Shown: piece after piece, positions 7,942 to 63,449 of the stretch | Layout of the letters: each line of letters begins with the position of its first letter | Position numbering within the stretch: position 1 is the first letter of the stretch | Assembly: GCA_024276195.1 (NCBI GenBank) | Contig: JAJRXR010000032.1 | Span: 1 to 64,000 of the forward strand | Reading direction: 5' to 3' | Source: Planctomycetota bacterium | GTDB lineage: Bacteria; Planctomycetota; Phycisphaerae; Phycisphaerales; UBA1924 | Length of the DNA stretch: 64,000 nt | Made by a program: the position numbers and the translations under genes | Notes under the pieces: generated by a model | Told to the model about the DNA's origin: nothing | Seen by the model: only the letters and a program-made list of their open reading frames with translations | Database searches by the model: none

Positions 7942-7947
7942 TACAGT
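7942..7947 (+). promoter_or_regulatory. TANNNT -10 element directly before oppA (predicted leaderless start)
   Basis: TACAGT ends six bases before the ATG at 7954. Counting a -10 box at -12 to -7 puts +1 on the A of the ATG. No Shine-Dalgarno is present. Confidence 0.5.
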
Positions 7948-7953
7948 GCGCCC

Positions 7954-9855
7954 ATGATCAAGCTGCTTGTGCCGGTGGTGCTTCTGGCGGCGCTCGTTGT
8001 GGGCGCGGTGCTGTCTGACGGCGCGACCAAGCCCGCCGACTTCACCTACATCAACGGCACGGGCACGATCAACACGCTGGATCTTCAGCGCATGAGCTGG
8101 CAGCCCGATCTGCGGGCCGCGCGGATGTTCTTTGAGGGACTGACGCGGAACGACGTCTTCACCTGGGGCTACGACATCGTGCCCGCCATCGCCGAACGCT
8201 GGGAGATCTCTGGCGACGGGCGGACGTACACGTTCCACCTGCGTGAGAGCGCGAAGTGGTCCAACGGGCAGCCGGTCGTCGCGGGCGACTTTGTCTACTC
8301 CTGGCGCCGGGCGCTGCTGCCGGACATCGCGTCGGACTACATCGCGTTCTTCCGCCTGATCGAGGGCGCGGGCGGGTTTTATGACTGGCGCGTCGAGTCG
8401 CTCGCGGCCTACGAGGCCCTGCCCGACGCGCAGCGCACCCAGGACGCCGCCGACGCGCTCTGGCAGGAAACCGTCGAGCGGTTTGACCGGACCGTGGCGC
8501 TCAAGGCGATCGACGACCGGACGCTGACGATGACGCTGACCGAGCCGACGCCGTACTGGCTGGACATGTGCGCATTCGCGGTGTTCTACCCGGTCTACCC
8601 GGATCTGGTGAGCCAGTACGAGCGCCCAGCTCCCAAGAACGGGAGGCTGGACCTGCGCCAGGGCTGGACCAAGCCGGACCGCCTCGTGTGCAGCGGCCCG
8701 TTCATGCTCACGGAATGGAAGTTCCGGCGCTCCATGCGAGCGGAAAAAAACCCGTATTACTGGGACCGGGACTCGATCGCGATCGACTCGATCGAGATGC
8801 CCGCAGTTGACGAGCCCAACGCGATGATCCTCGCGTTCGAGACGGGCAGCGTGGACTTTGTGACGGATGTCACCGTCGGCTACCGGGCCGACATGTATGC
8901 GCGCAAGCTCGAGTTCTACGACGAGAACCGCGAGTTGTACGAATCGCTCAAGGCCCAGGGCCTCGACGCGATCGAGATCGACCGGCGCCTGCCCGACGAC
9001 CCGCGAAAGAACATCCACGTCTTCCCCGCCTTTGCGACGTACTGGTACAACTTCAACTGCCTGCCCGAGCTCCCCGACGGGCGGGACAACCCGTTCGCCG
9101 ACCCGCGCGTCCGGCGCGCCTTCGCGATGGCGGTTGACAAAGAAACCCTCGTCCGCGAGGTCAAACGCACGGGCGAGCCCGTCGCGAGCACGATCATCCC
9201 CCCCAACGCCATCGGCGGGTACGTCTCGCCCAAGGGCCTCGGCTTCGACCCGCAGGGCGCAAGAGCCCTGCTCGCCGAGGCCGGCTGGCCCGACCCGAGC
9301 CAGTTCCCGACCGTCGAGATCCTGTTCAACAAGGACGCCGGGCATGATCTCGTCGCGCAGTCGGTCGCCAAAGACTGGCACCGGCACCTGGGCGTGCCCA
9401 CCCGCCTCCAGCAGAAAGAGCTCAAGGTCTATCCCAACGACCTGAAGAAGGCGAACTACATGGTCAGCCGCGCGGGGTGGTACGCCGATTATGGTGATCC
9501 AACTACATTTCTTGAGATCAACCGCTCGACCGACGGCAACAACGACCGCAAATACAACAACCCCGTTTATGACGACCTGCTCGACCGGGCGAGCACCGAG
9601 ACCGACAGCGCCAAGCGCATGGCGCTGCTTAGCGAGGCTGAGCGGATCATCGTCGAAGAGGACCTGCCCATGGTCCCGCTGTTCCACTATGTGACTGTGT
9701 ATCTGTTCGACCCCGACACCATCAGCGGCATCAACCCGCACGCCCGCGCCATGCAGAACATGTTCCTGATCGATGTCCTGGGCGATGGCAAAGGCCCGGA
9801 CACGCCCAGGGCCATGCCCATCCTCAAACCAGCTCTTGGGGGGGCGACGCCATGA
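7954..9855 (+). CDS. oppA: Peptide ABC transporter substrate-binding protein (OppA/DppA type)
   Basis: The 633-residue periplasmic protein captures short peptides or similar ligands for import. The N-terminus is a hydrophobic signal (KLLVPVVLLAALVVGAVLS) without a lipobox Cys. The body shows family-5 solute-binding features: a DIVPAIAERWEISGDGRTYT strand pattern near the start, FHLRESAKWSNGQPVVAGDF, and later AEAGWPDPSQFPTVEILFN and DYGDPTTFLEI. The length matches OppA (500-650). It overlaps oppB by four bases (ATGA), so the two are translationally coupled. Specificity is unknown. Confidence 0.95.
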   Translation: MIKLLVPVVLLAALVVGAVLSDGATKPADFTYINGTGTINTLDLQRMSWQPDLRAARMFFEGLTRNDVFTWGYDIVPAIAERWEISGDGRTYTFHLRESAKWSNGQPVVAGDFVYSWRRALLPDIASDYIAFFRLIEGAGGFYDWRVESLAAYEALPDAQRTQDAADALWQETVERFDRTVALKAIDDRTLTMTLTEPTPYWLDMCAFAVFYPVYPDLVSQYERPAPKNGRLDLRQGWTKPDRLVCSGPFMLTEWKFRRSMRAEKNPYYWDRDSIAIDSIEMPAVDEPNAMILAFETGSVDFVTDVTVGYRADMYARKLEFYDENRELYESLKAQGLDAIEIDRRLPDDPRKNIHVFPAFATYWYNFNCLPELPDGRDNPFADPRVRRAFAMAVDKETLVREVKRTGEPVASTIIPPNAIGGYVSPKGLGFDPQGARALLAEAGWPDPSQFPTVEILFNKDAGHDLVAQSVAKDWHRHLGVPTRLQQKELKVYPNDLKKANYMVSRAGWYADYGDPTTFLEINRSTDGNNDRKYNNPVYDDLLDRASTETDSAKRMALLSEAERIIVEEDLPMVPLFHYVTVYLFDPDTISGINPHARAMQNMFLIDVLGDGKGPDTPRAMPILKPALGGATP

Positions 9856-10859
9856 TCGGGATGGTCCTGCGCCGACTCGCGGCCCTGCCCGTGATCCTGA
9901 TCGTGATCTACACGATCACGCTGACGCTGGCGTGGGCCGTGCCGGGCAATCCGCTGGAAAACCCCGAGGGGCGCCAGCCCCCGGCGGAAGTCATGGAGAA
10001 GATGAAACGCCAGTACAACCTCGACAGCTTCCCGAGGTTCTACGTCTCGTACCTCGCCAACGCCTCGGGCTTTGAGTACGCCCGCGACTGGGCCACAGGT
10101 CAGATCGCCCATGAACGCGCCCAGGCCCAGGACGCCGGGCTCGTCCCGCCCGTGCGCCCGATCTTTGACTTTGGCCCCTCGCTGCACAACGAGGACTGGA
10201 CGGTCAACGAGATCGTCGCCGGCGCCATGCCCGTCTCGATCACGCTCGGGGCGCTGGCGATCCTGATCGCCCTGGTCATCGGGCTGACGGCGGGCGTGGT
10301 CGGAGCCGTCAAGCCCAACTCCATCGCCGACCACGCCACCCTCGCCGTCGCGCTCATCGGCATCTCGCTGCCCACGTTCGTGATCGGCACCGTGCTGCTG
10401 CTCATCTTCGGCGTCTGGCTGCCCATCCTGCCCGTCGGCGGCTGGGGCGGGTTCAAGCAGCTCGTCCTGCCCTCGGTCACGCTCTCGCTCCCGTTCGCCG
10501 CGTACATCGCGCGCCTGACGCGCATGGGCATGATCGAGGCGCTCGACTCCGACTACGTTCGCACCGCCCGCGCCAAGGGCTTGTCTGAGCGCTCGGTCCT
10601 GCTGCGCCACGCGCTCAAAAACGCCTTCCTGCCCGTGCTCAGTTTCCTGGGCCCGGCGACCGCCCTGGCGATGACCGGCTCGTTCATCGTCGAGCGCGTG
10701 TTCACGATCCCGGGGATGGGCCAGCACTTCATCAACGCCGTGCAGAACAAGGACCTGTTCCTGATCATGGGCGTGGTGCTGATTTTCGCGACGATGCTGA
10801 TCCTGTTCAACCTGGCCGTGGACGTGATGTACCGGTGGGTGGATCCGAGGATTGAGTGA
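9852..10859 (+). CDS. oppB: Peptide ABC transporter permease (OppB/DppB type)
   Basis: The 335-residue inner-membrane permease has about six hydrophobic helices. The first is at residues 9-30, and an extended periplasmic loop follows (residues 30-125). The ABC-permease EAA loop is clear: YVRTARAKGLSERSVLLRHA. The C-terminus has the usual FTIPGMGQHFINA segment. The usual partners OppC, OppD and OppF are not present. Four bases downstream the M48 protease gene ends on the other strand. The transporter must therefore use partners encoded elsewhere, or it is a remnant. Confidence 0.96.
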   Translation: MIGMVLRRLAALPVILIVIYTITLTLAWAVPGNPLENPEGRQPPAEVMEKMKRQYNLDSFPRFYVSYLANASGFEYARDWATGQIAHERAQAQDAGLVPPVRPIFDFGPSLHNEDWTVNEIVAGAMPVSITLGALAILIALVIGLTAGVVGAVKPNSIADHATLAVALIGISLPTFVIGTVLLLIFGVWLPILPVGGWGGFKQLVLPSVTLSLPFAAYIARLTRMGMIEALDSDYVRTARAKGLSERSVLLRHALKNAFLPVLSFLGPATALAMTGSFIVERVFTIPGMGQHFINAVQNKDLFLIMGVVLIFATMLILFNLAVDVMYRWVDPRIE

Positions 10860-10863
10860 AGAC

Positions 10864-12255
10864 TTATGCGAGCGGAATCGGATCGTCATCCTTGGGCGGA
10901 CGATCACCGGGTCTCTGTTGCTGCTCGAGCAGCTCAGAGACCGGCGTGAGCTTGGCCGCCTGGTAGGCGCTGCCAATTTCACGCAAGTAGAGGTGCGCGG
11001 TCGCGATCTTGCACAGCGACTCAAAATCTACAAAGAGCGCTGCGGCATGCGCATCGCCGCCCATGATCCCCTTGTCCTGCCTCCTAGCGATCGCGGCGAC
11101 ACGATCGGGCATCGGGGGGTGCGATGACCAAACGCTGCGCTGCTCCTCGAAGCCTTCGATAAAGCCATCCTTCCGGCGCTTTCCTGTGGGCGCGAGCTTA
11201 ACCGCGAGCCCGGGGAGGTTGTCCGGAAGCCTCCGCCCGCCCGCACCCCACATCCCATCGGTTCGCTCTCCGGCCTGTCTCCAGCCCTCACCGAGCTCAA
11301 GAACCCGAGCCAACGCCCAGGTGGCGTTGCGTGCGCCAGCGACGCGCGAAGCCGCAGCGTCCGCGTCGTACTCCATCCTCCTGAGCAGGAATGCGCCCAT
11401 CATGATCCCCAGGATCATAAACACCCAGAGCACACCCCTGGCCAGCATGAGGCAGATTGTCGCGAGCAATGCAACGAGCTGAAATCCCCACCAGCTGTCC
11501 TCGAGGGTTTCTTCAACGAGCTCATCGAGCACACCCCGCTCGTACACCGTTGACGTGGCCCACGACTCGACGAGCGTCAGCAAAGTATGAGCCCGCGCAG
11601 CTCCGCCCTGCGTGAAGTGCGCCAGCTCGTGGGCGATCACACTCGTTAGCTCGCTGCGGCGCATCCCGCCCACAAGCGAGAGGCCGATCGTCAGCACAAG
11701 GCGCTTGCCGAACAGCGCCGCGAGTATGCCGCCCTCGCGTGCCGCCGCCGCGTTGGGTTCGCAGATGACATCGATGCGAACCGGGTTCGGCGCCCCCATC
11801 ACGGCAGCAAGCTGTTCGACGTAGGCGTAGATGAATCGCTGCTCGCGCCGATCGAGCTGCACCAAGGGGTATCTGTCTCGGCGCCTCGGGATCAACGGGC
11901 CGAGCATGGCCAGCACCAGCGTCCCCCCGGCCACGATCGGTGCGATGTACGCGATCATTCGAATGATCAGCATGAAGATGCCGCCACGCACACCCCCGCG
12001 GGGGTACCCCTCTTCGGTCGAAATGTCAATCAGGAACGTCCCGTGAGTCACCCAGAGCCAGACGCCCCAGCACGCCAGCGCAATCAACCCCAGATACACC
12101 ACGACCTGAACCAGAACCATCAGGATCACACCAACCGCAGCAACGCGGTACAGCAGCGGTATCCTCACCGGCCTGTACTTTCCTGTGAACAGCGCTCGCG
12201 CCGGCGCGCCAGCGCTCTGTCGTGAGCTCTTGTGGTGGGTGTCCGCTCCGCCCAT
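10864..12255 (-). CDS. M48-family membrane zinc metalloprotease (HtpX/Ste24-like)
   Basis: The 463-residue protein probably degrades misfolded membrane proteins. Hydrophobic helices lie near residues 36-65 and 90-125 and again around 250-290. The zinc motif is VIAHELAHFTQGG (HEXXH). EYDADAAASRVAG supplies the third-ligand Glu, with the ExxxD pattern typical of M48. A basic/acidic tail follows (GDRPPKDDDPIPLA). It is convergent with oppB at a 4-bp gap. There is no Shine-Dalgarno or TANNNT directly at the ATG, so the start is less sure than the family. Confidence 0.92.
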   Translation of the reverse strand: MGGADTHHKSSRQSAGAPARALFTGKYRPVRIPLLYRVAAVGVILMVLVQVVVYLGLIALACWGVWLWVTHGTFLIDISTEEGYPRGGVRGGIFMLIIRMIAYIAPIVAGGTLVLAMLGPLIPRRRDRYPLVQLDRREQRFIYAYVEQLAAVMGAPNPVRIDVICEPNAAAAREGGILAALFGKRLVLTIGLSLVGGMRRSELTSVIAHELAHFTQGGAARAHTLLTLVESWATSTVYERGVLDELVEETLEDSWWGFQLVALLATICLMLARGVLWVFMILGIMMGAFLLRRMEYDADAAASRVAGARNATWALARVLELGEGWRQAGERTDGMWGAGGRRLPDNLPGLAVKLAPTGKRRKDGFIEGFEEQRSVWSSHPPMPDRVAAIARRQDKGIMGGDAHAAALFVDFESLCKIATAHLYLREIGSAYQAAKLTPVSELLEQQQRPGDRPPKDDDPIPLA

Positions 12256-12273
12256 CGACGCCCCCGCGAATAA

Positions 12274-12726
12274 TCAGCCTTCGGGTGTAAACACCGCCCC
12301 GCGTTCAACATCGAAGCTCACAAAGTCGCCCGCCTCAAAGTCCGACGCCTTCTGGCGCTGGTCCGTCACGGCGCACGTGATCGGCGCCCCGGCGTTGACC
12401 GTGATCGTGTTCTTGGGCGCGTCCACCGCGATCACCGAGCCCTGGACCCGGCGCGGGCGCCCGCTGATGGGCTCGATGTACCGCCCCCCGGCGCCGACCT
12501 TGTCGATGCGCCTCGCCTTGGCCGTGATCCGCCCGATCACCGTCTTGCCCACGCGGTCCGCCAGCGCCTCAGCCCCGGCGGCGGGCACGAGACGCATCCG
12601 GTAGCTCGTGTTCGGGAAGCTGAGCACCACAAACGCGGGGTTCGGCGCGGTCGCTTCGCAGACCTCTTCGAGGCGTCCACGGGCGAGGGTCGGGTCGATC
12701 TTGGTCGTTGGGGCGGGGTCGATCAT
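12274..12726 (-). CDS. Unknown conserved protein, 150 aa
   Basis: This small soluble protein has no membrane segment. Strand-rich segments such as NTSYRMRLVPAAG and NTITVNAGAPITCAV suggest a beta domain, followed by the tail DFVSFDVERGAVFTPEG. I do not assign a family. The start was taken at MIDPAPTT because TACGCT ends exactly six bases before this ATG; the longer frame upstream crosses the amidotransferase gene. The palindromic repeat at 12753-12816 lies between it and pabA. Confidence 0.75.
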   Translation of the reverse strand: MIDPAPTTKIDPTLARGRLEEVCEATAPNPAFVVLSFPNTSYRMRLVPAAGAEALADRVGKTVIGRITAKARRIDKVGAGGRYIEPISGRPRRVQGSVIAVDAPKNTITVNAGAPITCAVTDQRQKASDFEAGDFVSFDVERGAVFTPEG

Positions 12727-12732
12727 GGGGCA

Positions 12733-12738
12733 AGCGTA
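12733..12738 (-). promoter_or_regulatory. TANNNT -10 element before the 150-aa gene (predicted leaderless start)
   Basis: On the minus strand TACGCT ends six bases before the ATG at 12726. No Shine-Dalgarno is present. Confidence 0.5.
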
Positions 12739-12752
12739 TCCGCCAAAGCCTT

Positions 12753-12816: not shown

Positions 12817-12824
12817 CGGGGCCT

Positions 12825-13490: not shown

Positions 13491-13496
13491 GGGCGG

Positions 13497-13522
13497 AGTG
13501 TAGGTCCGTGTGCCGCTACCCT
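13497..13522. promoter_or_regulatory. Divergent -10 elements shared by pabA and the nucleosidase gene
   Basis: The 38-bp gap between the two genes holds both hexamers. AGTGTA (13497-13502) reads TACACT on the minus strand and ends six bases before the pabA GTG. TACCCT (13517-13522) ends six bases before the ATG at 13529. Both predict transcription starting on the start codon. Any -35 boxes would lie inside the opposite gene. Confidence 0.55.
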
Positions 13523-13528
13523 GAGCCC

Positions 13529-18810: not shown

Positions 18811-18816
18811 AGGATA
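18811..18816 (-). promoter_or_regulatory. TANNNT -10 element before coaX (predicted leaderless start)
   Basis: On the minus strand TATCCT ends five bases before the ATG at 18805. There is no Shine-Dalgarno. Confidence 0.5.
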
Positions 18817-30517: not shown

Positions 30518-31483
30518 CTAGCCCGCGGCGACCCGCCCTGCCCCGGTCTGGCCCAGGCGCCTGAGCGGAGCGTCGGCCTCGGACCGTTCGTCCTCGATCG
30601 GCGTCGCGGCCCGCTTGAAGAACCGGCTCGGCTTGTCGTCCGTCAGGCGGTCGTGCAGGCGACCGAGCGCCTCCTCGACAATCTGGCGGACACGCTCGCG
30701 CGAGATCCCGACCTGGTCGGCGATCTGCTTGAGCGTCAGCGGCTCCTGCCCGTCGAGCCCGAATCGCAGACGCAGGATCGTCGCCTCGCGGTCGTCGATC
30801 GTCTCCATCAGGTTCCGGAGGATGCCCAGCTCCTCGGCGTGCAGCGTCCGGTCGTCGGGCGTTCCGATACGCTCGTCGGCGATCAGCTCGCCCATGCTGA
30901 CCAGATCGCCGTCGGAGTTGGTGGGCTCCTGGTTGGGCGTCTTGAACGCCTTGACGGCGCGCTTGATGATCTTGACCTTCTTGATGGGAAGCTCCATCGA
31001 GTCGGCCAGCTCTTCGATGGAGGGCGTGCGCCCAAGCTCGGCCTCGAGCTTGCGCGACGCCTGCTTCCACTTGGCGATCAGCTCGACCATGTAGGCCGGG
31101 ATGTGGATCGGCTGGGTCGCGTTGATGAGCGCCCGCTTGATTCCTTGCTTGATCCACCAGGAGCCGTAGGTGCTGAACCTCGCTCCCTGGGCCGGGTCGA
31201 AGCCCTCAACGGCGCGCAGGAGCCCGATGTTGCCTTCCTCGATGAGGTCGGTCAACGGCAGCCCGCGCCCGTTGTAGTTCTTCGCGATCGACACCACCAG
31301 ACGCAGGTTCGAGCGGATCATCCGCTCTCGCGCCGCGGGGCAGTTGTCGTTGATAATTGCCCAACCGAGCTCTCGCTCCTCCTCAGCGGTGAGGAGCGGA
31401 GTGCGGTTGATTTCACGCAGGTAGATCTGCAAATCAGATTGCAGACCCCTTGCCCGGGTCGGCTGACCAGTTGAACGGCTCAC
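30518..31483 (-). CDS. RNA polymerase sigma-70 family factor, group 2-like
   Basis: The 321-residue sigma factor has region 1.2/2.1 (SDLQIYLREINRTPLLTAEE) and region 2 with NLRLVVSIAKNYNGRGLPL, EEGNIGLLRAVEGFDP and FSTYGSWWIKQGIKRALI. Region 3 follows, and region 4 has LTLKQIADQVGISRERVRQI. It lacks the long acidic region 1.1 of the primary sigma factor and ends in an Arg/Gly-rich tail, so a non-primary (group 2) or planctomycete-specific factor is likely. The start is a GTG. A CCGCGG N6 CCGCGG repeat is in its leader. It is divergent from the UVR-domain gene. Confidence 0.95.
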   Translation of the reverse strand: MSRSTGQPTRARGLQSDLQIYLREINRTPLLTAEEERELGWAIINDNCPAARERMIRSNLRLVVSIAKNYNGRGLPLTDLIEEGNIGLLRAVEGFDPAQGARFSTYGSWWIKQGIKRALINATQPIHIPAYMVELIAKWKQASRKLEAELGRTPSIEELADSMELPIKKVKIIKRAVKAFKTPNQEPTNSDGDLVSMGELIADERIGTPDDRTLHAEELGILRNLMETIDDREATILRLRFGLDGQEPLTLKQIADQVGISRERVRQIVEEALGRLHDRLTDDKPSRFFKRAATPIEDERSEADAPLRRLGQTGAGRVAAG

Positions 31484-36610: not shown

Positions 36611-36616
36611 ATCGTA
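36611..36616 (-). promoter_or_regulatory. TANNNT -10 element before mnmG (predicted leaderless start)
   Basis: On the minus strand TACGAT ends five bases before the ATG at 36605, separated by GGGGG. Confidence 0.45.
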
Positions 36617-38333: not shown

Positions 38334-39380
38334 TCAGGGATCTCTGCGGGGCTGGCCTGTGTTGATCTCGGAGCCGCCGTAGTCCACGCCCCGGAGCCCG
38401 CCGCGGGTCCATTTGTAGTGCCCGATGACATGGTCGAAGCCGTCGGAGCCGGGCATGGCGGGTGTCTCGAAGGAGAGGTCGGGGCGGTACCGATATGTGG
38501 TGGGGACATTGGCTCTGGGCTGGTTGGGACGGAAGCCGGGGTTGGACTCGCTCGTCACGAGCGCCCGGACAGAGCCATCAAAGAAGAGCTGCGAGGCCTT
38601 GGCCTGCTCGTGGGCGTGGAAGAAACCGAGCGCCGAAGAGTGTCGGTCGTGGAACTCGAACCACGCGACTTTCTGTGATGGGAAGCTGACCTGGGTGAGC
38701 TTGCGTCCGCCGAGAGGGAGAAAGCCGGGGAGGTAGAAGTTGTGCCCGCCCGGAGCCTGCTGGATCGTGTTCAGCCAGCCGCCAGTAGAACTGCGCCGTT
38801 TCTGGTCCTGAGCCCAGGCGAAGGGGATGACCTGGTAGGTCGAGCTGTAGGGCCACATGCGTTTCCAGGATTCAGAGCCGTCGGGACGCTGCGGGTATTC
38901 ACCCCGGTCGTACGTCCCGATCGGATCTTCTTGCCACTGGAGCAGGACACGATCCTCCGGACAGGCGGCGATGGCATCGGGCATGGGCTCATCGCGGTAA
39001 TCAAGCAGGACAAGGTGCGAGTAGCGCCGGTGCGGGTAGCGATCGATCAGCGGGGGGAACTGGTCACGCCCGGTCAGGCGGCGGATGATGTCGGTGGACT
39101 GAAGCATGGGCGCAACATCGTTGCTGGTGTTGCCGTTGAGATCGGGGAACGAACTGCGGTAGTTGCCCGGGGCCCAGGAATACGCGGCGACGAGATCGTT
39201 GTAGTCGGTCCCGTAGCCGATCATGAGGATGCCGTACTGGCGGAGGTTGGAGATGCAGACGGAACGCCGGGCGGCTCTGCGGGCGGAGCCGAGCGCGGGC
39301 AGGAGGATGCCGATGAGCAGCGCGATGATCGCGATGACCACCAGCAGCTCGATGAGCGTGAAGGCGCGTTGACGTTTCAT
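38334..39380 (-). CDS. Pseudopilin-like protein P1 of a seven-gene array
   Basis: The 348-residue protein starts MKRQRA then [20 protein letters not shown], a class III prepilin signal with Glu at +5. It should be cleaved by a prepilin peptidase after Ala. Conserved blocks follow: [39 protein letters not shown], the AACPED Cys, [40 protein letters not shown], and the tail [26 protein letters not shown] ends six bases before the ATG. It is probably a minor pseudopilin or pilus-like subunit; the exact role is unknown. It is the last gene of the array. Confidence 0.9.
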
Positions 39381-39419
39381 GGGAAGATTCTAACCGATTG
39401 CGGCGTGAAAGCCTAGGAA
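39381..39419 (-). promoter_or_regulatory. Leader shared with P3; TAGAAT six bases before P1
   Basis: The 39-bp gap between P2 and P1 is almost identical to that between P4 and P3 (41546-41584). It contains TAGAAT (39387-39392 on the minus strand), which ends six bases before the P1 ATG. Confidence 0.6.
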
Positions 39420-40454
39420 TCAGGGGACTTCGCGGGGCTGGCCGGTGTTGATCTCGGAGCCGCCGAAATCAACGCCCCGGAGTCCGCCGCGGGTCCATTT
39501 GTAATATCCAATAACGTCTTCGCGCATCTCGCCCGAGAGCGTGGGCGGCTCGAAGGTCAGATCCGGAGAGTACTTGTATTCCGTCGGATCGGGCAGACGC
39601 GGGAAGTTGGGGCGCCCGCCCGGGTTGGCGTCGGCGGTAAGCCGGGCGCTGCACGAGCCGTCAAACATCTGCATGGAGGCCTTCGCCTCGGGGTAGGCGT
39701 GGAAGACACCCTCGCCCGAGACGTGGCGGTCGTGGAACTCGAACCAGGCGACCTTCTGGGCGGGGAATCTGACTTGGGTGAGCTTGCGTCCGCCGAGAGG
39801 CGTGTCGAATGGCTGGAGCGAGTTGTGGTCGGCGGGAGACTGCTGGATGGTGCGGATCACCACGCCGTTCGGAGCGCGTCGTTTCTGGTCCGGCGCCCAG
39901 GAGAAGGGCACGACCTGATAGGTGGTGCCGTAGGGCCACATCTGGGTGTACGACGGCGAGTGCTGGTATGAATCCGGCACGGGATCGATGTTGAGCGGGT
40001 CCGATGCCCAGCCGATCTGGATCCGGTCCTCCGGGCACGCGGCGATCGGATCGGGTAGGGTCGCGTTGTTGTAATCCATCACGATCAGATGGGTGAAGCG
40101 ACGGTGCGGATAGCGCTCGCTCAGCGCCGGGAATGTGTCGCGCCCGGTCAGACGCCGGATGATGTCGGTGGACTGGTAGCCCGAGGCCACGAGATCGTTG
40201 CCGGGGTCTTCCAGATCGACGAACCGGGTCCGGTAGTTGCCCGGCTTCCAGCTGTAGGCGGTGATGAGGTCGTCGAAATCGGCGCCGTAGCTCGCCATCG
40301 CGACGGCGTACTGACGGATGTTCGACAGGCACTTGACACGCCGGGCGGTCTTCCGGGCGGAGCCGAGGGCGGGCAGGAGGATGCCGATAAGCAGCGCGAT
40401 GATCGCGATGACAACCAGCAGCTCGATGAGTGTGAAGGCGCGCTTGGGTCGCAT
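39420..40454 (-). CDS. Pseudopilin-like protein P2 of a seven-gene array
   Basis: The 344-residue paralogue of P1 starts MRPKRA then the same [20 protein letters not shown] segment. It has [54 protein letters not shown] and [19 protein letters not shown]. The tail is [18 protein letters not shown]. The middle differs clearly from P1. Neither a Shine-Dalgarno nor a TANNNT is directly before the ATG, so its start or promoter is unclear. Confidence 0.9.
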
Positions 40455-40492
40455 GGGAGGCTCGTCTCCGTCGGCGGGCGTTTCGGGAAAGG

Positions 40493-41545
<1,053 letters not shown>

Positions 41546-41584
41546 GGAAAGATTCTAACCGATTGCGGCGTGAAGGCCTAGGAA
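41546..41584 (-). promoter_or_regulatory. Leader shared with P1; TAGAAT six bases before P3
   Basis: Nearly the same sequence as 39381-39419. TAGAAT (41552-41557 on the minus strand) ends six bases before the P3 ATG. Confidence 0.6.
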
Positions 41585-42625
41585 TCAGGGCGTAAGACGA
41601 GGCTGGCCGGTGTTGATCTCGGAGCCACCGAAATCTACGCCGCCCAGGCCGCCGCGGGTCCATCGGAATCGCCCGGGCAGGAGGCGGCTGGAGTCTCCCA
41701 GCACAGGCGGATCGGTCGAGAGCGGCGAATACCGGACCTCAACGGGGTCTGGAGAGGACGGATCGTTCGGATCGAACCCGAGATTGGACGCCTCGGAACG
41801 CAACGCCCGGGCCGAGCCATCAAAGAACGAGAGCGAGCAGGTCGCCTGCTCGTAGGCGTACCAAGCCTGGGTCGCGGAGTGGCGGTCGTGCGCCTCGTAC
41901 ATGTGGACCTTCTGGGCGGGGAAGCGGACCTGGGTGAGCTTGCGTCCGCCGAACGGGAGCGAGCCGGGCGAGACGGTCAGGGAGTTGGGTCCTGGCCCGA
42001 GCGTGCGTCGTGGGCCGCGCCTCTGGTCCTGCGAGAAGGACGCGGGCGTGACGATGTAGGTCGCGGAATAGGCCCAGCGCTGCGCGATCTCGGGACGGTT
42101 GATCAGGCCCGCTGCGATATCCGACGTCGGGATATCGCTCAGGTCCAGCGGGTCCGCGGCCCATTGCAGACGCGAGCGATCCTCCGGGCAGATCGCGATC
42201 TGGGCCGGGAGCTGGCGGGACATGTAATCGAGCAGCACGAGATGCGAGAACATCGCGTGCGGCAGAAGGAACGAGGCGTTGCGGATCTTGTTCTCGCCCG
42301 TGGCGCGCCCGGTGCGCCTCCGCAGAATGTCGGTGTGCTGCCACTGGGCGCCGGCGGTGTGGCTGATGGGTGTCACCTCGCCCTGGGGATGCCCGAGCAC
42401 GGGGTAGGTCTCGCCGCGCTTCCAGGAGAAGGACGGGATGAGGTCGTCCGTGTCCACGGCGTACGAGCCGTTGGTAATCCCGAACTGCTTGAGGTTTGAC
42501 AGGCACACCGTTCGTCGGGCGGCGCGCCGGGCCGAGCCGAGCGCGGGCAGGAGAATGCCGATGAGCAGCGCAATGATCGCGATGACGACAAGCAACTCGA
42601 TCAGCGTAAACGCACGTTTGCGCAT
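41585..42625 (-). CDS. Pseudopilin-like protein P4 of a seven-gene array
   Basis: The 346-residue paralogue starts MRKRA and the standard pilin segment. The start at MRKRAFTL was chosen because a longer frame would precede the pilin leader. [97 protein letters not shown] and the tail [20 protein letters not shown] follow. The tail differs by Gly for Arg from the other six. No clear ribosome site or TANNNT is next to the ATG. Confidence 0.88.
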
Positions 42626-49517: not shown

Positions 49518-49523
49518 ACTCTA
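49518..49523 (-). promoter_or_regulatory. TANNNT -10 element before the dnaJ-like gene (predicted leaderless start)
   Basis: On the minus strand TAGAGT ends seven bases before the ATG at 49510. Confidence 0.42.
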
Positions 49524-53541: not shown

Positions 53542-53547
53542 AGGGTA
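53542..53547 (-). promoter_or_regulatory. TANNNT -10 element before the 271-aa gene (predicted leaderless start)
   Basis: On the minus strand TACCCT ends six bases before the ATG at 53535. Confidence 0.5.
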
Positions 53548-56908: not shown

Positions 56909-57094
56909 TACTCGCCGGGGGCGTTGGCCAGTGACTGCGGGCAAGCCTCGGTTCACACCGGCGAGATCGCGTTCTTGATATCGCCCGGGATTCGCGGACC
57001 GGAGATGGCTCGCGGGGATCGGATGGTCGATATCCTGTGACGGGTCGGCGATCGCCAGCCTTACATATTCCGAACCTGCTCGCAAGGACTGCGC

Positions 57095-59092
57095 ATGCCC
57101 CGCGATATCCCCGTCGGCAACGGCGACCTGCTGATTACCTTCGACCACCTGTACCGGGTGCGGGATCTGTATTTTCCGCGTGTGGGCAAGCACAACCACA
57201 CCGCTGGGCACGTCCAGCGGTTCGGGGTGTGGGCCGACGGGCAGTTCGCGTGGATCGAGGACGAGGGGTGGACGCGTGAGCTGCGCTACAAGGCGGACAC
57301 GCTGGTGACGGATGTCCACCTGGTCCACGAGGAGCTGGGTCTTGAGATCACCTGCAACGACGCCGTGGACTTTCACGAGCCGGTGTTCTTCCGCCGGATG
57401 ACGGTGCGAGATCTGAAGAACAAGCCGCGCGATGTTCGCCTGTTTTTCCATACCGACCTGTCGATCAACGGCAGCGCCGTTGGCGACACGGCCAACTATG
57501 ACCCGACAACGCGGGCCGTGGTGATGTACAAGGACGACGCGTACTTCCTGATCAACGCGGGCGACAAGCAGAAGTGCGGGATCGACCACTGGGCGATCGG
57601 CGCCAAGCGTGTGGGCGGCGCCGAGGGGACGTGGCGCGACGCCGAGGATGGGCAGCTCGGGCGCAACGCGATCAGCCAGGGCTCGGTGGACTCGACCGTC
57701 GGGTTCAACCTGCAGGTGCAGCCCGGGGGCGAAGCGACCGTCACGTCGTGGATCGCGTGCGGGCACTCGTACGACGATGTCCGCAAGCTCAACGACCGGA
57801 TCTGGACCAAGGGAACCGACAAGATGATGGGGCGGACCGAGGCGTACTGGCGCCTGTGGTGCCGCAAGGAGCCGGTGGACACCGCCCCCCTGCCCGAGCC
57901 GGTGCGCGACCTGTTCTACCGCTCGCAGCTGATCCTGCGCACACAGATCGACAACGGCGGGGCGATCATCGCCGCGAACGATTCGGACATCACGCACTTC
58001 GCCGGGGATCACTATTCGTACTGCTGGATGCGTGACGGGGCGTTGGTGGCGCACGCGCTGATCGCCGCGGGCCAGAGCGAGCTGTCGCGGTCGTTCTTTC
58101 GGTTCGCGTCGGATTGCATCGGGGACCGCGGATACTTCCTGCACAAGTACACGCCCGACGGGCGACTGGCCTCGAGCTGGCACCCGTGGATGCTCGATGG
58201 CAAGAAAATCCTGCCGATCCAGCAGGACGAGACGGCATTGGTTCTCTGGGCGCTGCGCCGACACTTCGAGAAGTTCCGCGACGTGGAGTTCATCAAGCCG
58301 CTGTACTCGCGCCTGATCGCGTGGCCCGCGGAGTGGATGCTCGAATACCGAGACCACAACGGGCTGCCCAAGCCCTCGTGGGATCTGTGGGAAGAGCGGC
58401 GCGGGGTTCACCTGTTCACGTGCGCCTCGACGATCGGGGCGCTGGTGGCGGCGAGCGAGTTCGCCGAGGACTTTGGCGAGCCCGAGCGGGCCGTCGCGTT
58501 CCGCGAGGGCGCCGAGCGGATGCGCGGCGCCGTCCGCCGGCACCTCTGGCACCCGGAGCGAAAGTGCTTCGCCCGGATGGCCGTCCCGCTCGAAGACGGG
58601 ACGTACCGCCTGGACATGACCCGCGACAGCGCCAACTACGCGCTGTTCGCCATCGCCGGCTTCGATATTGACGACCCGATGATCGAGGCCGAGATGCGCT
58701 CGATCCACGAGCGCCTCGCGGTGCGCACCGACGTGGGCGGCATGGCCCGATACGAACGCGACTACTACCACCAGGTCGAATCGGAAAAGGTCGAAGACGT
58801 CCCGGGCAACCCGTGGGTGATCTGCACGCTCTGGCAGGCGCTGTACGAGATCGCCAAAGCCAAAGACGTTGACGAACTCAAGGGCGCGATGGACCGCCTG
58901 TCGTGGGCGGTGGACCGCTCGCACGACTCGGGCGTGCTCGCCGAGCAGTACCACCCGTACTCGGGCGACCCGATCTCGGTCTCGCCGCTGACGTGGTCGC
59001 ACTCGACGTTCGTCGTGACGTGCCTGCAATACCTTGAGAAACTGAGCGAGCTGACGAACGCTCCGAAAGACGCGAAGGCCAGCAAAGCCTGA
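57095..59092 (+). CDS. GH15 glucoamylase-like glycoside hydrolase
   Basis: The 665-residue enzyme probably hydrolyses alpha-glucan ends or alpha-linked oligosaccharides. A beta-sandwich N-terminal domain (YFPRVGKHNHTAGHVQRFGV) precedes the (alpha/alpha)6 barrel, with HYSYCWMRDGALVAHAL, PSWDLWEERRGVHLFTCAST holding a catalytic Glu, and VLAEQYHPYSGDPISVSPLT holding the second Glu. No signal peptide is visible, so it is probably cytoplasmic and may act with the glycogen-synthase-like enzyme at 163-1677. AAGGACTGCGC precedes the ATG. Confidence 0.94.
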   Translation: MPRDIPVGNGDLLITFDHLYRVRDLYFPRVGKHNHTAGHVQRFGVWADGQFAWIEDEGWTRELRYKADTLVTDVHLVHEELGLEITCNDAVDFHEPVFFRRMTVRDLKNKPRDVRLFFHTDLSINGSAVGDTANYDPTTRAVVMYKDDAYFLINAGDKQKCGIDHWAIGAKRVGGAEGTWRDAEDGQLGRNAISQGSVDSTVGFNLQVQPGGEATVTSWIACGHSYDDVRKLNDRIWTKGTDKMMGRTEAYWRLWCRKEPVDTAPLPEPVRDLFYRSQLILRTQIDNGGAIIAANDSDITHFAGDHYSYCWMRDGALVAHALIAAGQSELSRSFFRFASDCIGDRGYFLHKYTPDGRLASSWHPWMLDGKKILPIQQDETALVLWALRRHFEKFRDVEFIKPLYSRLIAWPAEWMLEYRDHNGLPKPSWDLWEERRGVHLFTCASTIGALVAASEFAEDFGEPERAVAFREGAERMRGAVRRHLWHPERKCFARMAVPLEDGTYRLDMTRDSANYALFAIAGFDIDDPMIEAEMRSIHERLAVRTDVGGMARYERDYYHQVESEKVEDVPGNPWVICTLWQALYEIAKAKDVDELKGAMDRLSWAVDRSHDSGVLAEQYHPYSGDPISVSPLTWSHSTFVVTCLQYLEKLSELTNAPKDAKASKA

Positions 59093-59129
59093 GAGCGCGC
59101 CGCCCGGCGACGCGCAAGCGTGCGCCTTG

Positions 59130-59195
59130 TCCGAGCCGCGAGCGTGAGCTCGCGGAGTTGGCGTATTCAGCGCGAGCTCACGCTCGCGGCTCGGA
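59130..59195. repeat. Palindrome with 25-bp arms, same family as 29213-29290
   Basis: Perfect arms 59130-59154 and 59171-59195 are separated by 16 bases. The 24-bp core of each arm (from CCGAGCCGCGAG to CGCG) is the same as in the palindrome at 29213-29290 except one base. It lies 38 bp after the GH15 gene and near the end of a convergent gene, without T runs. Confidence 0.87.
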
Positions 59196-59231
59196 TCAGA
59201 GGATCCGAGAGGCGCCGGCGCCCGCCGGGGG

Positions 59232-59507
59232 CTACTTCCCGTTCGAGGCCTGGCCCGCGAGGCGCCCGAGCCCCTCAAGATCACGGTCCCGCAGGACCTG
59301 CTGGATCTTGGACTTGTTCAGCCCCGAGCGGGCCAGCGCCTTCTCGGCACGGATCCAGAGCTGGTTGGTCTTCTTCTCGTTGCCGAGCGCGAGGAAGATC
59401 TCCGTCACCAGCTCGCCGAGGCGCTGGGCGACGATGGTGTCCTGGTTGTCGTAGTAGCGGTCGATGATCTTCCGCTGGGTCTTTGAGAAATCGCGTCCGG
59501 TGGCCAT
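59232..59507 (-). CDS. Small unknown protein, 91 aa
   Basis: A basic, helical 91-residue protein (FSKTQRKIIDRYYDNQDTIV, LGNEKKTNQLWIRAEKALAR). It may bind nucleic acid, but no motif proves it. AAGGACACGACC precedes the ATG. Confidence 0.82.
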   Translation of the reverse strand: MATGRDFSKTQRKIIDRYYDNQDTIVAQRLGELVTEIFLALGNEKKTNQLWIRAEKALARSGLNKSKIQQVLRDRDLEGLGRLAGQASNGK

Positions 59508-59519
59508 TGGTCGTGTCCT

Positions 59520-60338
59520 TCAGGGTGTGGTTCTTGGAGGGTACCAGTCCGAATCGATGATCGGTATGGTGTGCCGCTCAGCAAAGGAGCGAAGCTCGCT
59601 TTCCGGGCGAGGTTCGAGAGAGTCATTCGTCAGCCCGACGCGATACACACTGCCATCATCAAACACGACGACCATGTGCCTATCCTGTACTTCACGTCCG
59701 TTCGGGGCCGTGTGCATCCGCACCCGGTAGATGCCAGCGACCGATTCGGCCAAGTGAGTCCGGACTCGGAGGGAATACCAGCGGCTGGCCGTGATCGAGT
59801 CCGCATCAATCCTGATGAACCACGTCAACCCGATCAGGAAGAGCGGCAAAACGCTCAACGAGATAAACACAACCAGCCCGTTGACGAGGCGGAGCATCCC
59901 GTGAGCGCCGCGTTTTGAGCCCGATTTCGACGCCGACGCGGCCATCAGACGCGGCGCCTCCGCGAAGAGTATCCTCGCACCCAGATCGATCAGCGCGGTA
60001 GCGTGGATCATGCCCAGGAATAACGCGGGAATCACCCAGTAGCGCACGCCCGGGGTGCATAGGACACCACTTCCGGACGCCGTGCTCCACACGAGCCGAG
60101 CCACAACAACGAGCACGCCCAGCCAGACGCTCCCCACCACCGCAGCGGAGCCAAGAACCAGCAGTACCATCGCCATGTTGTATACCGCGAGCGCCCCCGC
60201 AGAGGGTCGGTCTGTCTCGTCGTACGCGTCGATGTCCCGCTTGATCCGTCCGAGCGTGCGCCAAATGAATACCACACCCACGATGTTCAGTCCGGTGATG
60301 GCAACAAATCCGAGACCGATTGCCCACCACGTTGGCAC
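59520..60338 (-). CDS. Polytopic membrane protein of unknown function
   Basis: The 272-residue protein has about four membrane helices (first VGVVFIW near residues 20-26, then about 50-85 and 95-115, and one near 145-165), with a soluble C-terminus (YRVRMHTAPNGREVQDRHMV). I use the GTG at 60338 because GAAGGA precedes it at normal spacing. The ribosome site lies within the end of purM, so the genes are coupled. No family is recognised. Confidence 0.8.
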   Translation of the reverse strand: MPTWWAIGLGFVAITGLNIVGVVFIWRTLGRIKRDIDAYDETDRPSAGALAVYNMAMVLLVLGSAAVVGSVWLGVLVVVARLVWSTASGSGVLCTPGVRYWVIPALFLGMIHATALIDLGARILFAEAPRLMAASASKSGSKRGAHGMLRLVNGLVVFISLSVLPLFLIGLTWFIRIDADSITASRWYSLRVRTHLAESVAGIYRVRMHTAPNGREVQDRHMVVVFDDGSVYRVGLTNDSLEPRPESELRSFAERHTIPIIDSDWYPPRTTP

Positions 60339-60340
60339 AG

Positions 60341-61483
60341 TCAATCCTTCAACCTCACCCGCCCCTGACCCTTGGTGATTGTGCCCAGGCGGTAGACCCG
60401 CTCGCCGAGCTTCTCGAGCCTCCGCGCGATCGAGTCGGCGAAGGTCGGGCGGACGATCAGGCAGTAGCCCACGCCCATGTTGAAGACTTTGGCCATCTCG
60501 TCGTCGCTGACGCCGCCGCGGGCTTGCAGGAACGGGAAGATCGGGGGGACGTCCCAGGCGCCGGGGTCGATCACGGCGTCAACGCCCCCGTGCAGCGCCC
60601 GGCACAGGTTGCCCGCGAGCCCGCCGCCGGTGATGTGGGCCATGCCCGTGACTACTTTTTTGACCTTGTACGCGCGGAGCGTGCGGACAATCGGCCTGGC
60701 GTACAGGCGCGTCGGCGTCAGCAGCACGTCGCCCAGCGTGGGCGCGTCGCCGTTGTCCCCGCCCAGCTCCGGGTAGGCCTTGCCAAGATCCAGCTTCGCG
60801 TGGTCCACAACGTTGCGCACAAGGCTGAACCCGTTGGAATGCACCCCGTCGGACGCAAGGCCCAGCACCACGTCGCCCGGCTCGACCCGCGCCGTGTCGG
60901 TGGCGCGCTTGAGCTCGACCACCCCCACCGCGAACCCGGCCAGGTCAAAGTCGCCCGGCGCGTACAGGTCGTTCATCTCCGCCGTCTCGCCCCCGATCAG
61001 CGCGCACCCGGACAGTTCACACCCCTTGCCGATGCCCGCCATCAGCTCCGTCAGCACCGCCTGGTCCACCGCGTTGACGGCGATGTAATCCAGAAACAAC
61101 AGCGGCTCGGCGGATTCAACCACCAGGTCGTTGATGCTCATCGCGACCAGATCGATCCCGACCGTGTCGTAGCGCCCGAGTTCGATCGCCAGGCGGAGCT
61201 TGGTGCCCACGCCGTCGCAGCAGGCGACGAGCACGGGATCCTTGAAGTTGTGCTTGAACAGGCTCTCGTTGTAATCGAGGCGCACGAGACCCGCAAAGCC
61301 CCCGCCCCGCTCGAGCACGCGAGGCCCGAACGTGCGGCGCATCATCGACTGGATCGATCCGGCGAACCGGTCGCCCGCCTCGATGTCCACGCCCGAGGCG
61401 GCGTACGTCAGCCCGCCCGGACGCCCGGGCTTGCTCTGGTCCTTGCTCTGGCCCTTGTTCTGTCTGCCGCCCGATCCGCCCAT
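60341..61483 (-). CDS. purM: Phosphoribosylformylglycinamidine cyclo-ligase
   Basis: The 380-residue enzyme makes AIR from FGAM in purine synthesis. [20 protein letters not shown] starts the enzyme core. [60 protein letters not shown] and [20 protein letters not shown] are PurM motifs. The first 20 residues form a Gly/Gln/Lys-rich extension not usual in PurM. The ATG at 61483 has TATCCT six bases upstream. Confidence 0.96.
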
Positions 61484-61489
61484 GGGCAA

Positions 61490-61495
61490 AGGATA
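61490..61495 (-). promoter_or_regulatory. TANNNT -10 element before purM (predicted leaderless start)
   Basis: On the minus strand TATCCT ends six bases before the ATG at 61483. Confidence 0.5.
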
Positions 61496-61568
61496 CCCAC
61501 GCGCCCGACCCGGGCGCAGCGGGCATAGGATGACTCTCTCAGTCCGCTTTCACGCCGCAGGAGCCACC

Positions 61569-62717
61569 ATGCCCGCTCAGCTTTTCACCTCCGAATCCGT
61601 CTCGATGGGGCACCCCGACAAGGTCGCCGACCAGATTTCTGACGCAATCCTCGACGCGATGCTCGAGCGGGACCCGTACTCGCGCGTGGCGGTGGAGACG
61701 ATGGTCTCGACGGGCATGGCCGTGATCGCGGGCGAGGTGACGACCACCGCCTATGTGGACATCCCCGAGATCGTCCGCGAGACGATCCGGGCCATCGGCT
61801 ACACCGACGGCGCCATGCGCTTCGACGCCGAGTCCTGCGCCGTGCTCAACTCCATCGACCGCCAGTCGCCCGACATCGCGATGGGCGTCGACAAGGAGGG
61901 CGCGGGTGACCAGGGCATGATGTTCGGCTTTGCGTGCAACGAGACGCCCGAGCTGATGCCGCTGCCGATCCAGCTCGCGCACCGCCTCGTCGAGCGCCAG
62001 GCCCATGTCCGGGCGGACGGGCTGATCCCGGGCCTGCGCCCGGACGCAAAGAGCCAGGTGACGGTAGAGTACGACGCCTCGCGCCCCGTGGGCGTCAACA
62101 CCGTCGTCCTCTCCACCCAGCACGACAAGACCTGGAATGACCGTCAGGATGAGCTGAAAAAACAGATCACCGAGCACGTCATCAGGCCCGTCCTCGGCGA
62201 GCACTGGAACCCGGGCATCACCATCCACGTCAACCCCACAGGACGCTTCGAGATCGGCGGCCCCCACGGTGACTGCGGCCTGACCGGACGCAAGATCATC
62301 GTCGATACCTACGGCGGACGCGGGAGGCACGGCGGCGGCGCCTTCTCCGGCAAGGACCCCACCAAGGTTGACCGCTCCGCCGCCTACATGGCCCGGTACA
62401 TCGCCAAGAACATCGTCAGCGCGGGCCTCGCTGACCAGTGCGAGATCCAGCTCTCGTACGCCATCGGCGTCGCCGAGCCGACGAGCGTGTATGTGGACTG
62501 CTTCGGGACAGAGAAAGCCGACACGGGCAAGATCTCGTCCGCCGTGCGCGAGATTTTCCAGCTCACCCCCCGCGGCATCATCGAGCAGCTCAACCTCCGC
62601 AAGCCCATCTACGCCCAGACCGCCCGCCACGGGCACTTCGGGCGCCAGCCCCAGGGCGACTTTTTCACCTGGGAAAAAACGGACAAAGCCGACGCGCTCA
62701 AGTCACTCGTCGGCTGA
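61569..62717 (+). CDS. metK: S-adenosylmethionine synthetase
   Basis: The 382-residue enzyme makes SAM from methionine and ATP. It has [20 protein letters not shown] (ATP and substrate region), [20 protein letters not shown], and [20 protein letters not shown] (P-loop-like). AGGAGCCACC precedes the ATG. The gene ends inside the 3' end of nadD on the other strand (15-bp overlap). No SAM riboswitch structure was found in the 85 bp between purM and metK. Confidence 0.97.
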
Positions 62718-63437
62718 GGCTTCAACAGGCGGATACAACCCGTGCTCGACGATGTACGCGCGGACCCGCTCGTCGAGATGCTCGATCGGCTTCTCACGCT
62801 GCGCCGGGTCGCCCAGGGCATCGCGGATCGCCGTGGCGCTGACCTCGATCACCGGCGTCCGCACGAACCCCTCCCGCCAACGCTCCAGCTCCCCCTCGGA
62901 CCACACCCCGACGCCCCGCATCGCCTCGACGAGCGCCCCGGGCGAATCCAGCCCGCCCCGGGGCAGCACCAGCGCCCGGGCAAGGCCCAGGATCCGGCGC
63001 GCCTCACGCCAGCGGTGGAACGCGAGCGCCTGGTCGGCGCCGATGAGGAAGCGAATGTCAGCGGCGCCCAACGCCGCAGCCCGCTCGAGCGTGTCGATCC
63101 AGTAGCTTGCCTGGGTCGCTGAGGACCGGTCCAGCTCCTCGGTCCAGATGCTCGCCCGGTCAAGGTCAGCGATTGCTAGGCGGAGCATCTCGACGCGCTG
63201 GGCGTCGCTGGCCTGCGGCGGCTGGCCCTTGTGCGGTGAGCGAGCCGCGGGAACAAAGACGATCGTCCCGCGCCCCCCCATCGCCAGGCGCCGGGCCTGG
63301 TCGGCGAGCGTGACATGCGCCTCGTGGACCGGGTCGAACGTCCCCCCGACGAGCAGGACAGGCCCGCCCGCCCAGGCTGGGACGCCGGGGGGGACAGGGG
63401 AGACGGCGCGGTCGGGCTGGAAGGGCGGAAGTTCCAT
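62703..63437 (-). CDS. nadD: Nicotinate-nucleotide adenylyltransferase
   Basis: The 244-residue enzyme joins nicotinate mononucleotide and ATP in NAD synthesis. [20 protein letters not shown] has the (H/T)xGH-like start motif of the family, here [22 protein letters not shown] and the ISxTxIR-like [10 protein letters not shown] follow. The N-terminus has a 25-residue proline-rich extension. TAGCAT ends six bases before the ATG. It overlaps metK by 15 bp at the 3' end. Confidence 0.95.
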
Positions 63438-63443
63438 CGATCG

Positions 63444-63449
63444 ATGCTA
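63444..63449 (-). promoter_or_regulatory. TANNNT -10 element before nadD (predicted leaderless start)
   Basis: On the minus strand TAGCAT ends six bases before the ATG at 63437. Confidence 0.5.

What the first reader, a model, noticed from the sequence alone, without database searches (positions are those of the whole stretch)
7942..63449. Start-codon-proximal TANNNT boxes suggest common leaderless transcription
Seen: TANNNT ends 5-7 bases before the start of twelve genes, mostly exactly 6: oppA-like 7954, pabA 13490, 12726, nucleosidase 13529, coaX 18805, mnmG 36605, P1 39380, P3 41545, dnaJ-like 49510, 53535, purM 61483 and nadD 63437. A -10 box at -12 to -7 plus six bases puts +1 on the start codon. 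These genes mostly lack a Shine-Dalgarno, while many others in the window have strong ones. By hand, at about 66% G+C the chance of TANNNT at a given position is near 0.5%. Over about 57 genes and three spacings, less than one hit is expected. Leaderless mRNA with this geometry is known in actinobacteria and Deinococcus; in this lineage it is my inference.
Basis: partly seen in the sequence, partly recalled or inferred. Interest (0 to 1): 0.78.

Follow-up and report, generated by a model that had tools for sequence, protein, structure and literature searches.

The report
Leaderless genes in Phycisphaerales planctomycetes
Roughly one gene in nine in this planctomycete bacterium appears to start its messenger RNA directly at the start codon, with the promoter box touching the gene, a layout known from actinobacteria and Deinococcus but apparently not described for this order.

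Summary
All 12 boxes are in the window, 5-7 bases from the start, none with a Shine-Dalgarno (SD: 0 of 12, against 22 of 45 other genes). In a 651-kb sample of the same genome TANNNT ends exactly 6 bases before 36 of 513 starts (2.7 expected; shuffles mean 1.2, maximum 6). Whole-genome counts of TANNNT-N6-ATG and TANNNT-N12-ATG are 241 and 61. Boxed genes rarely have SD (5 of 69 against 190 of 444), more often follow a divergent neighbour (61 of 115 against 231 of 768), and none overlaps the same-strand gene before it (0 of 115 against 80 of 768). purM carries the box in 34 of 34 loci held from the order, 7 of 21 from the rest of the class, 5 of 26 from the rest of the phylum. Best reading: a sigma-70-type -10 element putting +1 on or near the start codon, giving leaderless mRNA for about 11% of genes. 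The kind is known; my searches found no description of it in this order (Phycisphaerales). No 5' end is mapped, so the transcription start is inferred, not shown.

The parts
7942..7947 (+). TACAGT box, gap 6 to ATG 7954 (OppA-like solute-binding protein, PF00496)
   Evidence: a box is kept in the G001 ortholog
12733..12738 (-). TACGCT box, gap 6 to ATG 12726 (150 aa, no Pfam or NCBIfam hit)
   Evidence: kept in the G001 ortholog
13497..13502 (-). TACACT box, gap 6 to GTG 13490 (TrpG/PabA-type glutamine amidotransferase)
   Evidence: kept in the G001 ortholog
13517..13522 (+). TACCCT box, gap 6 to ATG 13529 (MTA/SAH nucleosidase); back to back with the previous box in a 38-bp intergenic stretch
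   Evidence: kept in the G001 ortholog
18811..18816 (-). TATCCT box, gap 5 to ATG 18805 (coaX, type III pantothenate kinase)
   Evidence: kept in G001 and G002; flagged in 21 of 30 ortholog rows, genome G013 listed twice
36611..36616 (-). TACGAT box, gap 5 to ATG 36605 (mnmG)
   Evidence: kept in G001 and G002; flagged in 6 of the 10 loci held, of 30 genomes with a match
39387..39392 (-). TAGAAT box, gap 6 to ATG 39380 (P1, pseudopilin-like, N_methyl)
   Evidence: no clear ortholog: none of 11 relatives' cluster members is boxed
41552..41557 (-). TAGAAT box, gap 6 to ATG 41545 (P3, paralogue of P1, near-identical upstream)
   Evidence: none of 11 relatives' cluster members is boxed
49518..49523 (-). 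TAGAGT box, gap 7 to ATG 49510 (DnaJ-like)
   Evidence: kept in G001 and G002
53542..53547 (-). TACCCT box, gap 6 to ATG 53535 (271 aa, no Pfam or NCBIfam hit)
   Evidence: no ortholog in the genus loci held
61490..61495 (-). TATCCT box, gap 6 to ATG 61483 (purM)
   Evidence: boxed in 34 of 34 loci held from the order
63444..63449 (-).
   Evidence: kept in G001, G002 and G003; flagged in 13 of 30 ortholog rows, four of them over 100 bases from the aligned region

Best explanation
The boxes are -10 elements of the housekeeping (sigma-70/SigA-type) RNA polymerase, placed so that transcription starts on, or within about 3 bases of, the first base of the start codon. The mRNAs are leaderless or nearly so and are translated from a 5'-terminal AUG or GUG without an SD sequence. 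Shown: the genome-wide excess at a sharp spacing, the need for T1, A2 and T6, the lack of SD, promoter-like gene context, and conservation in the genus and, for purM, across the order. Inferred: the transcription start, the sigma factor, and 5'-terminal initiation by the ribosome. By the strict TANNNT criterion about 11% of genes are of this kind (70 observed minus 13 expected, of 513); SD-led genes coexist.
For: Gap 6: 36 of 513, expected 2.7, p 1.5e-28; gaps 5-9: 70 against 13.3. Other start rules agree: longest ORF 39 of 507, longest ATG ORF 36 of 510. Reverse test: 88 TANNNT-N6-[A/G]TG sites against 29-50 at each other gap from 0 to 20, 37 of the 88 on called starts. Whole genome 241 against 61. 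SD in 5 of 69 against 190 of 444. Divergent upstream neighbour in 61 of 115 against 231 of 768, p 2e-6; same-strand overlap 0 of 115 against 80 of 768; within each context gaps 5-9 exceed gaps 14-53 except for overlapping genes. At gap 6, C at -1 in 44 of 62 genes against about 48% elsewhere, p 6e-4. Genus-level orthologs of nine window genes keep a box in 16 of 16 pairs. purM 34 of 34 loci in the order, the box following the start as N-terminal length changes. The genome has an open frame for a primary-type sigma factor (region reading recalled). The geometry equals the usual -12 to -7 numbering of a -10 box (recalled).
Against: No 5' end is mapped. No -35 or extended -10 element is detectable in 122 boxed genes, so the box stands alone as promoter evidence, though the M. 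tuberculosis TSS study also found no conserved -35 (PMC3898074, passages). About 13 of the 70 boxes at gaps 5-9 are expected by chance. Of 12 other hexamer forms counted at gaps 5-7, three rise about twofold: AANNNT 13 against 5.3, GANNNT 28 against 15.2, TNNNAT 23 against 10.4; TANNNT itself is 54 in the same call. In G043 the gene sample has 4 boxes at gap 5 and only 1 at gap 6. Gaps of 8-10, frequent in purM of other families of the order, imply leaders of a few bases or a longer discriminator. In closely spaced same-strand pairs 4 of 7 boxes reuse the TAG stop codon of the gene before, which can arise by chance. P1 and P3 boxes are not seen in relatives' members of the same gene cluster (0 of 11).
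Confidence: 0.9

Rival explanations
1. The box is a translation signal (AT-rich site for ribosomal protein S1, or relief of mRNA structure) on a leadered mRNA, not a promoter.
For: Nakagawa 2017 (PMC5397173, passages) could not separate leaderless from S1 signals in its frequency biases. Boxed genes lack SD. AANNNT and GANNNT also rise about twofold at gaps 5-7.
Against: TTNNNT, TCNNNT, TANNNC and TANNNG show no excess; the spacing is sharp at 6; a translation signal should also occur before genes that overlap the previous gene, but there is none in 80; divergent context is favoured.
Confidence: 0.05
2. The boxes are true -10 elements but most transcripts begin 1-5 nt upstream of the start codon, giving ultra-short leaders rather than strictly leaderless mRNA. 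This overlaps with the best explanation.
For: Gaps 7-10 make up 27 of the 72 boxes at gaps 5-10 in the own genome, about 11 of them expected by chance (2.7 per gap); several purM orthologs have gaps 8-10.
Against: The mode is exactly 6, with C preferred at -1 and A or G at +1 by virtue of the start codon, the usual start for a -10 box.
Confidence: 0.25
3. Chance or gene-start artefact.
For: About 13 boxes at gaps 5-9 are expected by chance in 513 genes.
Against: 200 shuffles give at most 6 at gap 6 against 36; three start rules agree; the site counts of the reverse test and the whole-genome gap-6 and gap-12 counts use no gene calls.
Confidence: 0.01

Closest known systems
TANNNT-led leaderless genes of Deinococcus-Thermus
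   Same: TANNNT about 6-7 bp before the ORF, T1, A2 and T6 nearly invariant, an RBS motif before other genes (PMC12340547, outline and section 7 read).
   Different: Nearly one third of D. radiodurans genes there; here about 11% by strict TANNNT. There RNA levels support it; here there are no RNA data.
Leaderless transcripts of Mycobacterium tuberculosis
   Same: TANNNT -10, no conserved -35, C common at -1, purine at +1 (PMC3898074, passages).
   Different: TSSs are mapped there (26% of genes with a primary TSS leaderless). There 49% of TANNNT promoters are preceded by [G/C][A/G]N; the column frequencies here show no strong preference of that kind.
TA-led genes of Zheng et al. 2011
   Same: The same computed signal, about 10 bp upstream of the start, taken to mean leaderless (PMC3160421, abstract and section 7 read).
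   Different: The groups listed in section 7 as having leaderless genes do not include Planctomycetes, and the search listing shows no occurrence of 'planctomycet' in that paper.
Non-SD genes of one planctomycete in Nakagawa et al. 2017
   Same: Few SD genes and a leaderless or S1-type frequency bias (PMC5397173, passages).
   Different: One species, no motif or spacing in the passages seen, leaderless and S1 not separated.

Membership tests
TANNNT-type bacterial leaderless genes | -10-like TANNNT at -12 to -7 of the start codon in genome-wide excess | tested here: met
   36 of 513 against 2.7 expected; 241 against 61 in the whole genome
TANNNT-type bacterial leaderless genes | No Shine-Dalgarno before these genes while others have one | tested here: met
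   5 of 69 against 190 of 444; window 0 of 12 against 22 of 45
TANNNT-type bacterial leaderless genes | Genes tend to lie first in a transcription unit | tested here: met
   divergent neighbour 61 of 115 against 231 of 768; overlapping 0 of 115 against 80 of 768, with composition control. A proxy: transcription units are not mapped.
TANNNT-type bacterial leaderless genes | No conserved -35 element (as in M. tuberculosis) | tested here: inconclusive
   none seen in 122 boxed genes, about 20% of them expected to be chance boxes
TANNNT-type bacterial leaderless genes | Start codon ATG or GTG | tested here: met
   boxed genes: 103 ATG, 19 GTG, 1 TTG; the caller itself favours ATG
TANNNT-type bacterial leaderless genes | Mapped transcription start at the start codon | not testable with these tools
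   no RNA data for this genome
TANNNT-type bacterial leaderless genes | Translation from a 5'-terminal start codon | not testable with these tools
   needs ribosome profiling or reporter assays

The most novel reading that the evidence does not exclude
The Phycisphaerales are a further major bacterial lineage, beside Actinobacteria and Deinococcota, in which leaderless expression is a stable, order-wide system. Particular genes, purM above all, have been kept leaderless across six families of the order, while others differ in start type between close relatives (the P1/P3 gene cluster is boxed here and mostly SD-led in the genus). The start has its own context (C-rich -3 to -1, proline more often as second residue). 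Outside the order the trait is patchy, as if gained or lost several times.
Probability: 0.6. Interest if true: 0.6.

Novelty: new member of a known kind. Interest (0 to 1): 0.5.

Why it matters
Leaderless initiation is the simplest form of translation start and bears on how bacterial ribosomes choose start codons. A planctomycete order that uses it for about a tenth of its genes, next to related lineages with little sign of it, gives a natural comparison for what in the ribosome, the sigma factor or base composition permits it. In practice, gene callers that ignore the box can misplace such starts, as my own did for coaX, and promoters for genetic work in this order should be sought directly at the start codon. 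The gap-6 against gap-12 count is a quick screen for the trait in unannotated genomes.

Tried and rejected
Looked for a -35 or extended -10 element aligned to the box: nothing above noise (TTG at most 4 of 122 at any offset from -32 to -3). Looked for weaker -10 variants among genes with neither box nor SD: AANNNT (10 at gap 5 against a mean of 1.6) and TANNNG (6 at gap 9 against 1.2) rise, the other seven stay within about twofold; not pursued. Tested whether the trait is phylum-wide: pooled samples outside the order show no excess (class without f9, 9 of 173 against 10.8; phylum 16 of 248 against 12.9). Family f9 of the class looked promising from purM (6 of its 6 loci boxed), but its gene sample (4 of 38 against 1.5, p 0.065) and whole-genome counts (median ratio 1.11 in 22 genomes) show no clear excess. 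The reversed-pattern control printed by the search tool is a poor baseline at high G+C (own genome 241 against 160), so I used gap 12, but only for the class; for the phylum only the reversed control exists. Random in-frame internal starts are a weak control, because in frame the box would need a TAC or TAT codon. The first pooled counts held 3 genes of G001 twice (overlapping stretches); removes them and the results stand. In one search I first looked for coaX on the wrong strand. I first took the P1 and P3 best hits as orthologs that had switched to SD; one search shows that the hit in L055 is closer to P2, so I withdrew that as a one-gene switch and dropped the four P1/P3 pairs (17 of 20 pairs had a box; 16 of 16 without them).
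Full report
What was checked. The window is part of a 3.04-Mb draft genome in 88 contigs. The named relatives found are three Phycisphaerales MAGs. None of the 12 has GGAG, GAGG or AGGA in the SD region, against 22 of 45 other window genes.

Beyond chance. I wrote a gene caller that uses codon usage and start-codon type only, never upstream sequence. Applied to the window plus 40 further stretches (36 of these 41 sources held bases, 650,782 in all) it gave 524 genes, of which 513 have 60 bases of readable upstream sequence. TANNNT at gaps 4 to 10: 3, 9, 36, 9, 10, 6, 2, with 2.7 expected per gap. The window gives 9 of 57 at gap 6, the rest of the sample 27 of 456. In 200 dinucleotide-preserving shuffles the whole set gives mean 1.2 and maximum 6 at gap 6. 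Taking the longest ORF or the longest ATG ORF instead gives 39 of 507 and 36 of 510. Read the other way, TANNNT-N6-[A/G]TG occurs 88 times in the sample and each other gap from 0 to 20 gives 29-50; 37 of the 88 are called starts. Over the whole genome TANNNT-N6-ATG occurs 241 times and TANNNT-N12-ATG 61 times.

What the box is. Of 12 other hexamer forms counted at gaps 5-7, TTNNNT, TCNNNT, TANNNC and TANNNG show no excess (3, 4, 5 and 3 against 8.0, 16.2, 6.9 and 4.2), while AANNNT, GANNNT and TNNNAT rise about twofold; TANNNT is 54. Boxed genes have SD in 5 of 69 cases, others in 190 of 444. Pooling the own genome and six genomes of the order without duplicates, the upstream neighbour is divergent for 61 of 115 boxed genes and 231 of 768 others, and no boxed gene overlaps a same-strand gene before it, against 80 of 768. 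Because intergenic DNA is richer in A+T, I compared gaps 5-9 with gaps 14-53 within each context: divergent 61 against 12.0 expected (292 genes), same strand at 60 bp or more 29 against 7.4 (319), 21-59 bp 18 against 2.9 (129), 0-20 bp 7 against 0.5 (63), overlapping 0 against 0.75 (80). This fits a promoter better than a ribosome signal. In the 0-20 bp class 4 of the 7 boxes reuse the TAG stop of the gene before, so that small class is weak. At gap 6 the base before the start codon is C in 44 of 62 genes against about 48% elsewhere. No -35 or extended -10 is visible. The genome has an open frame for a primary-type sigma factor (the reading of its regions is mine, from recall), two exact matches to the usual 16S 3' end with anti-SD, and IF3. 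So SD-led initiation should also work.

Conservation in the genus. In the loci held from three genomes of the same genus, matches to 11 of the 12 window genes could be compared, 20 pairs in all; rows under 45% identity or too near a locus end were left out, and no spacing control was run. Nine genes keep a box at gaps 5-9 in 16 of 16 pairs. P1 and P3 belong to a cluster of paralogues: best hits in relatives are not clear orthologs (the L055 hit of P1 is 60% identical to P1 and 74% to P2). In the own cluster P1 and P3 are boxed, P2 has SD, P4 neither; of 11 distinct cluster members in L054-L056 none is boxed and 7 have SD. Column identity printed is conditioned on finding a box and is not independent evidence.

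Conservation in the order. purM was searched in 35 genomes of the order (31, four more); 34 loci are held, since G015 matched in two pieces and was not fetched. A box at gaps 5-10 before a candidate start occurs in 22 of 22 loci of the family and 12 of 12 of five other families. Control spacings give 0-1 of 22 and 1-4 of 12; five other hexamer forms at the same gaps give 0-4 of 22 and 0-6 of 12. In the rest of the class it is 7 of 21 loci held (best-scoring of 52 genomes searched; control spacings 1-4, other forms 0-3), in the rest of the phylum 5 of 26 (of 55 searched; controls 2-6, other forms 1-7). The boxed start moves by tens of bases relative to the conserved protein between genomes, and the box moves with it. 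Other genes, without spacing control: coaX flagged in 21 of 30 rows (G013 twice), mnmG in 6 of 10 loci held, nadD in 13 of 30 rows, four of those over 100 bases from the aligned region.

Distribution. Gene samples, boxes at gaps 5-9 with expectation in brackets: G001 8 of 58 (1.0), G002 8 of 62 (1.7), G018 10 of 84 (1.4), G043 8 of 74 (1.8, only one of them at gap 6), G022 13 of 82 (3.2), G026 7 of 68 (1.9); together 54 of 428 (11.0), p 1.5e-21. Outside the order: class without f9 9 of 173 (10.8), f9 4 of 38 (1.5), phylum 16 of 248 (12.9). Named controls: Deinococcus radiodurans MP1 6 of 38 (1.2), E. coli K-12 0 of 37 (1.8), and 50 kb of a Phycisphaera mikurensis plasmid 4 of 40 (0.1, a baseline resting on a single background hit); with its annotated starts 4 of 46 at gaps 5-9 and 3 at all other gaps from 0 to 45. 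Whole-genome gap-6 to gap-12 ratio: 9 of 9 in the family, own genome included, at 1.5 or more (median 2.76); 13 of 15 in the rest of the order (median 1.90, up to 9.17; below are G023 at 1.41 and G219 at 1.08); 8 of 126 in the rest of the class (median 1.12). Two class genomes of family f11 (G143, G148) reach about 4. In the phylum only the reversed-pattern control is available; some genomes stand out, such as G297 (103 against 23), G282 (268 against 74), G227 (130 against 36) and G230 (196 against 63). So the trait is near order-wide and patchy beyond.

Prior work. TANNNT-led leaderless genes are established in Actinobacteria and Deinococcus-Thermus (PMC3160421 abstract and section 7; PMC3898074 passages; PMC12340547 outline and section 7). 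PMC3160421 does not name Planctomycetes among the groups with leaderless genes. PMC5397173 (passages) counts one planctomycete among species with a leaderless or S1-type bias. PMC10783764 (passages) names Phycisphaerae once, in an anti-SD table. My searches for leaderless genes or mapped starts with Planctomycetes or Phycisphaerae (listings only apart from the papers named, and searches listed 20 of 112 and 20 of 31) showed no description of them in this order. Most subscription journals are not in that library.

Verdict. Observation confirmed, interpretation supported, mechanism known, lineage apparently new. What remains is RNA: no 5' end has been seen.

Noticed in passing
13491-13528: A 38-bp intergenic stretch between the pabA-like gene (-) and the nucleosidase gene (+) holds two back-to-back boxes, one for each gene; both genes also keep a box in G001.
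   Followed up: partly
38334-42625; L054, L055, L056: A cluster of pseudopilin-like paralogues: here P1 and P3 are boxed with near-identical upstream sequence and P2 has SD; of 11 relatives' members none is boxed and 7 have SD. Start type changes within the cluster.
   Followed up: partly
own sample and six genomes of the order: Boxed genes use proline (CCN) as second codon more often: 25 of 123, against 38 of 352 SD-led and 19 of 466 with neither (p 0.013 against SD-led).
   Followed up: partly
30518-31432: The window encodes a sigma factor with a Sigma70 region 3 match over the curated cut-off.
   Followed up: no
L007, L012, L041, L048: In four closely spaced same-strand pairs the TAG of the box is the stop codon of the preceding gene.
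   Followed up: no
G143, G148 (class); G297, G282, G227, G230 (phylum): Genomes outside the order with strong gap-6 counts, candidates for separate gains of leaderless starts; the phylum ones lack the gap-12 control.
   Followed up: no
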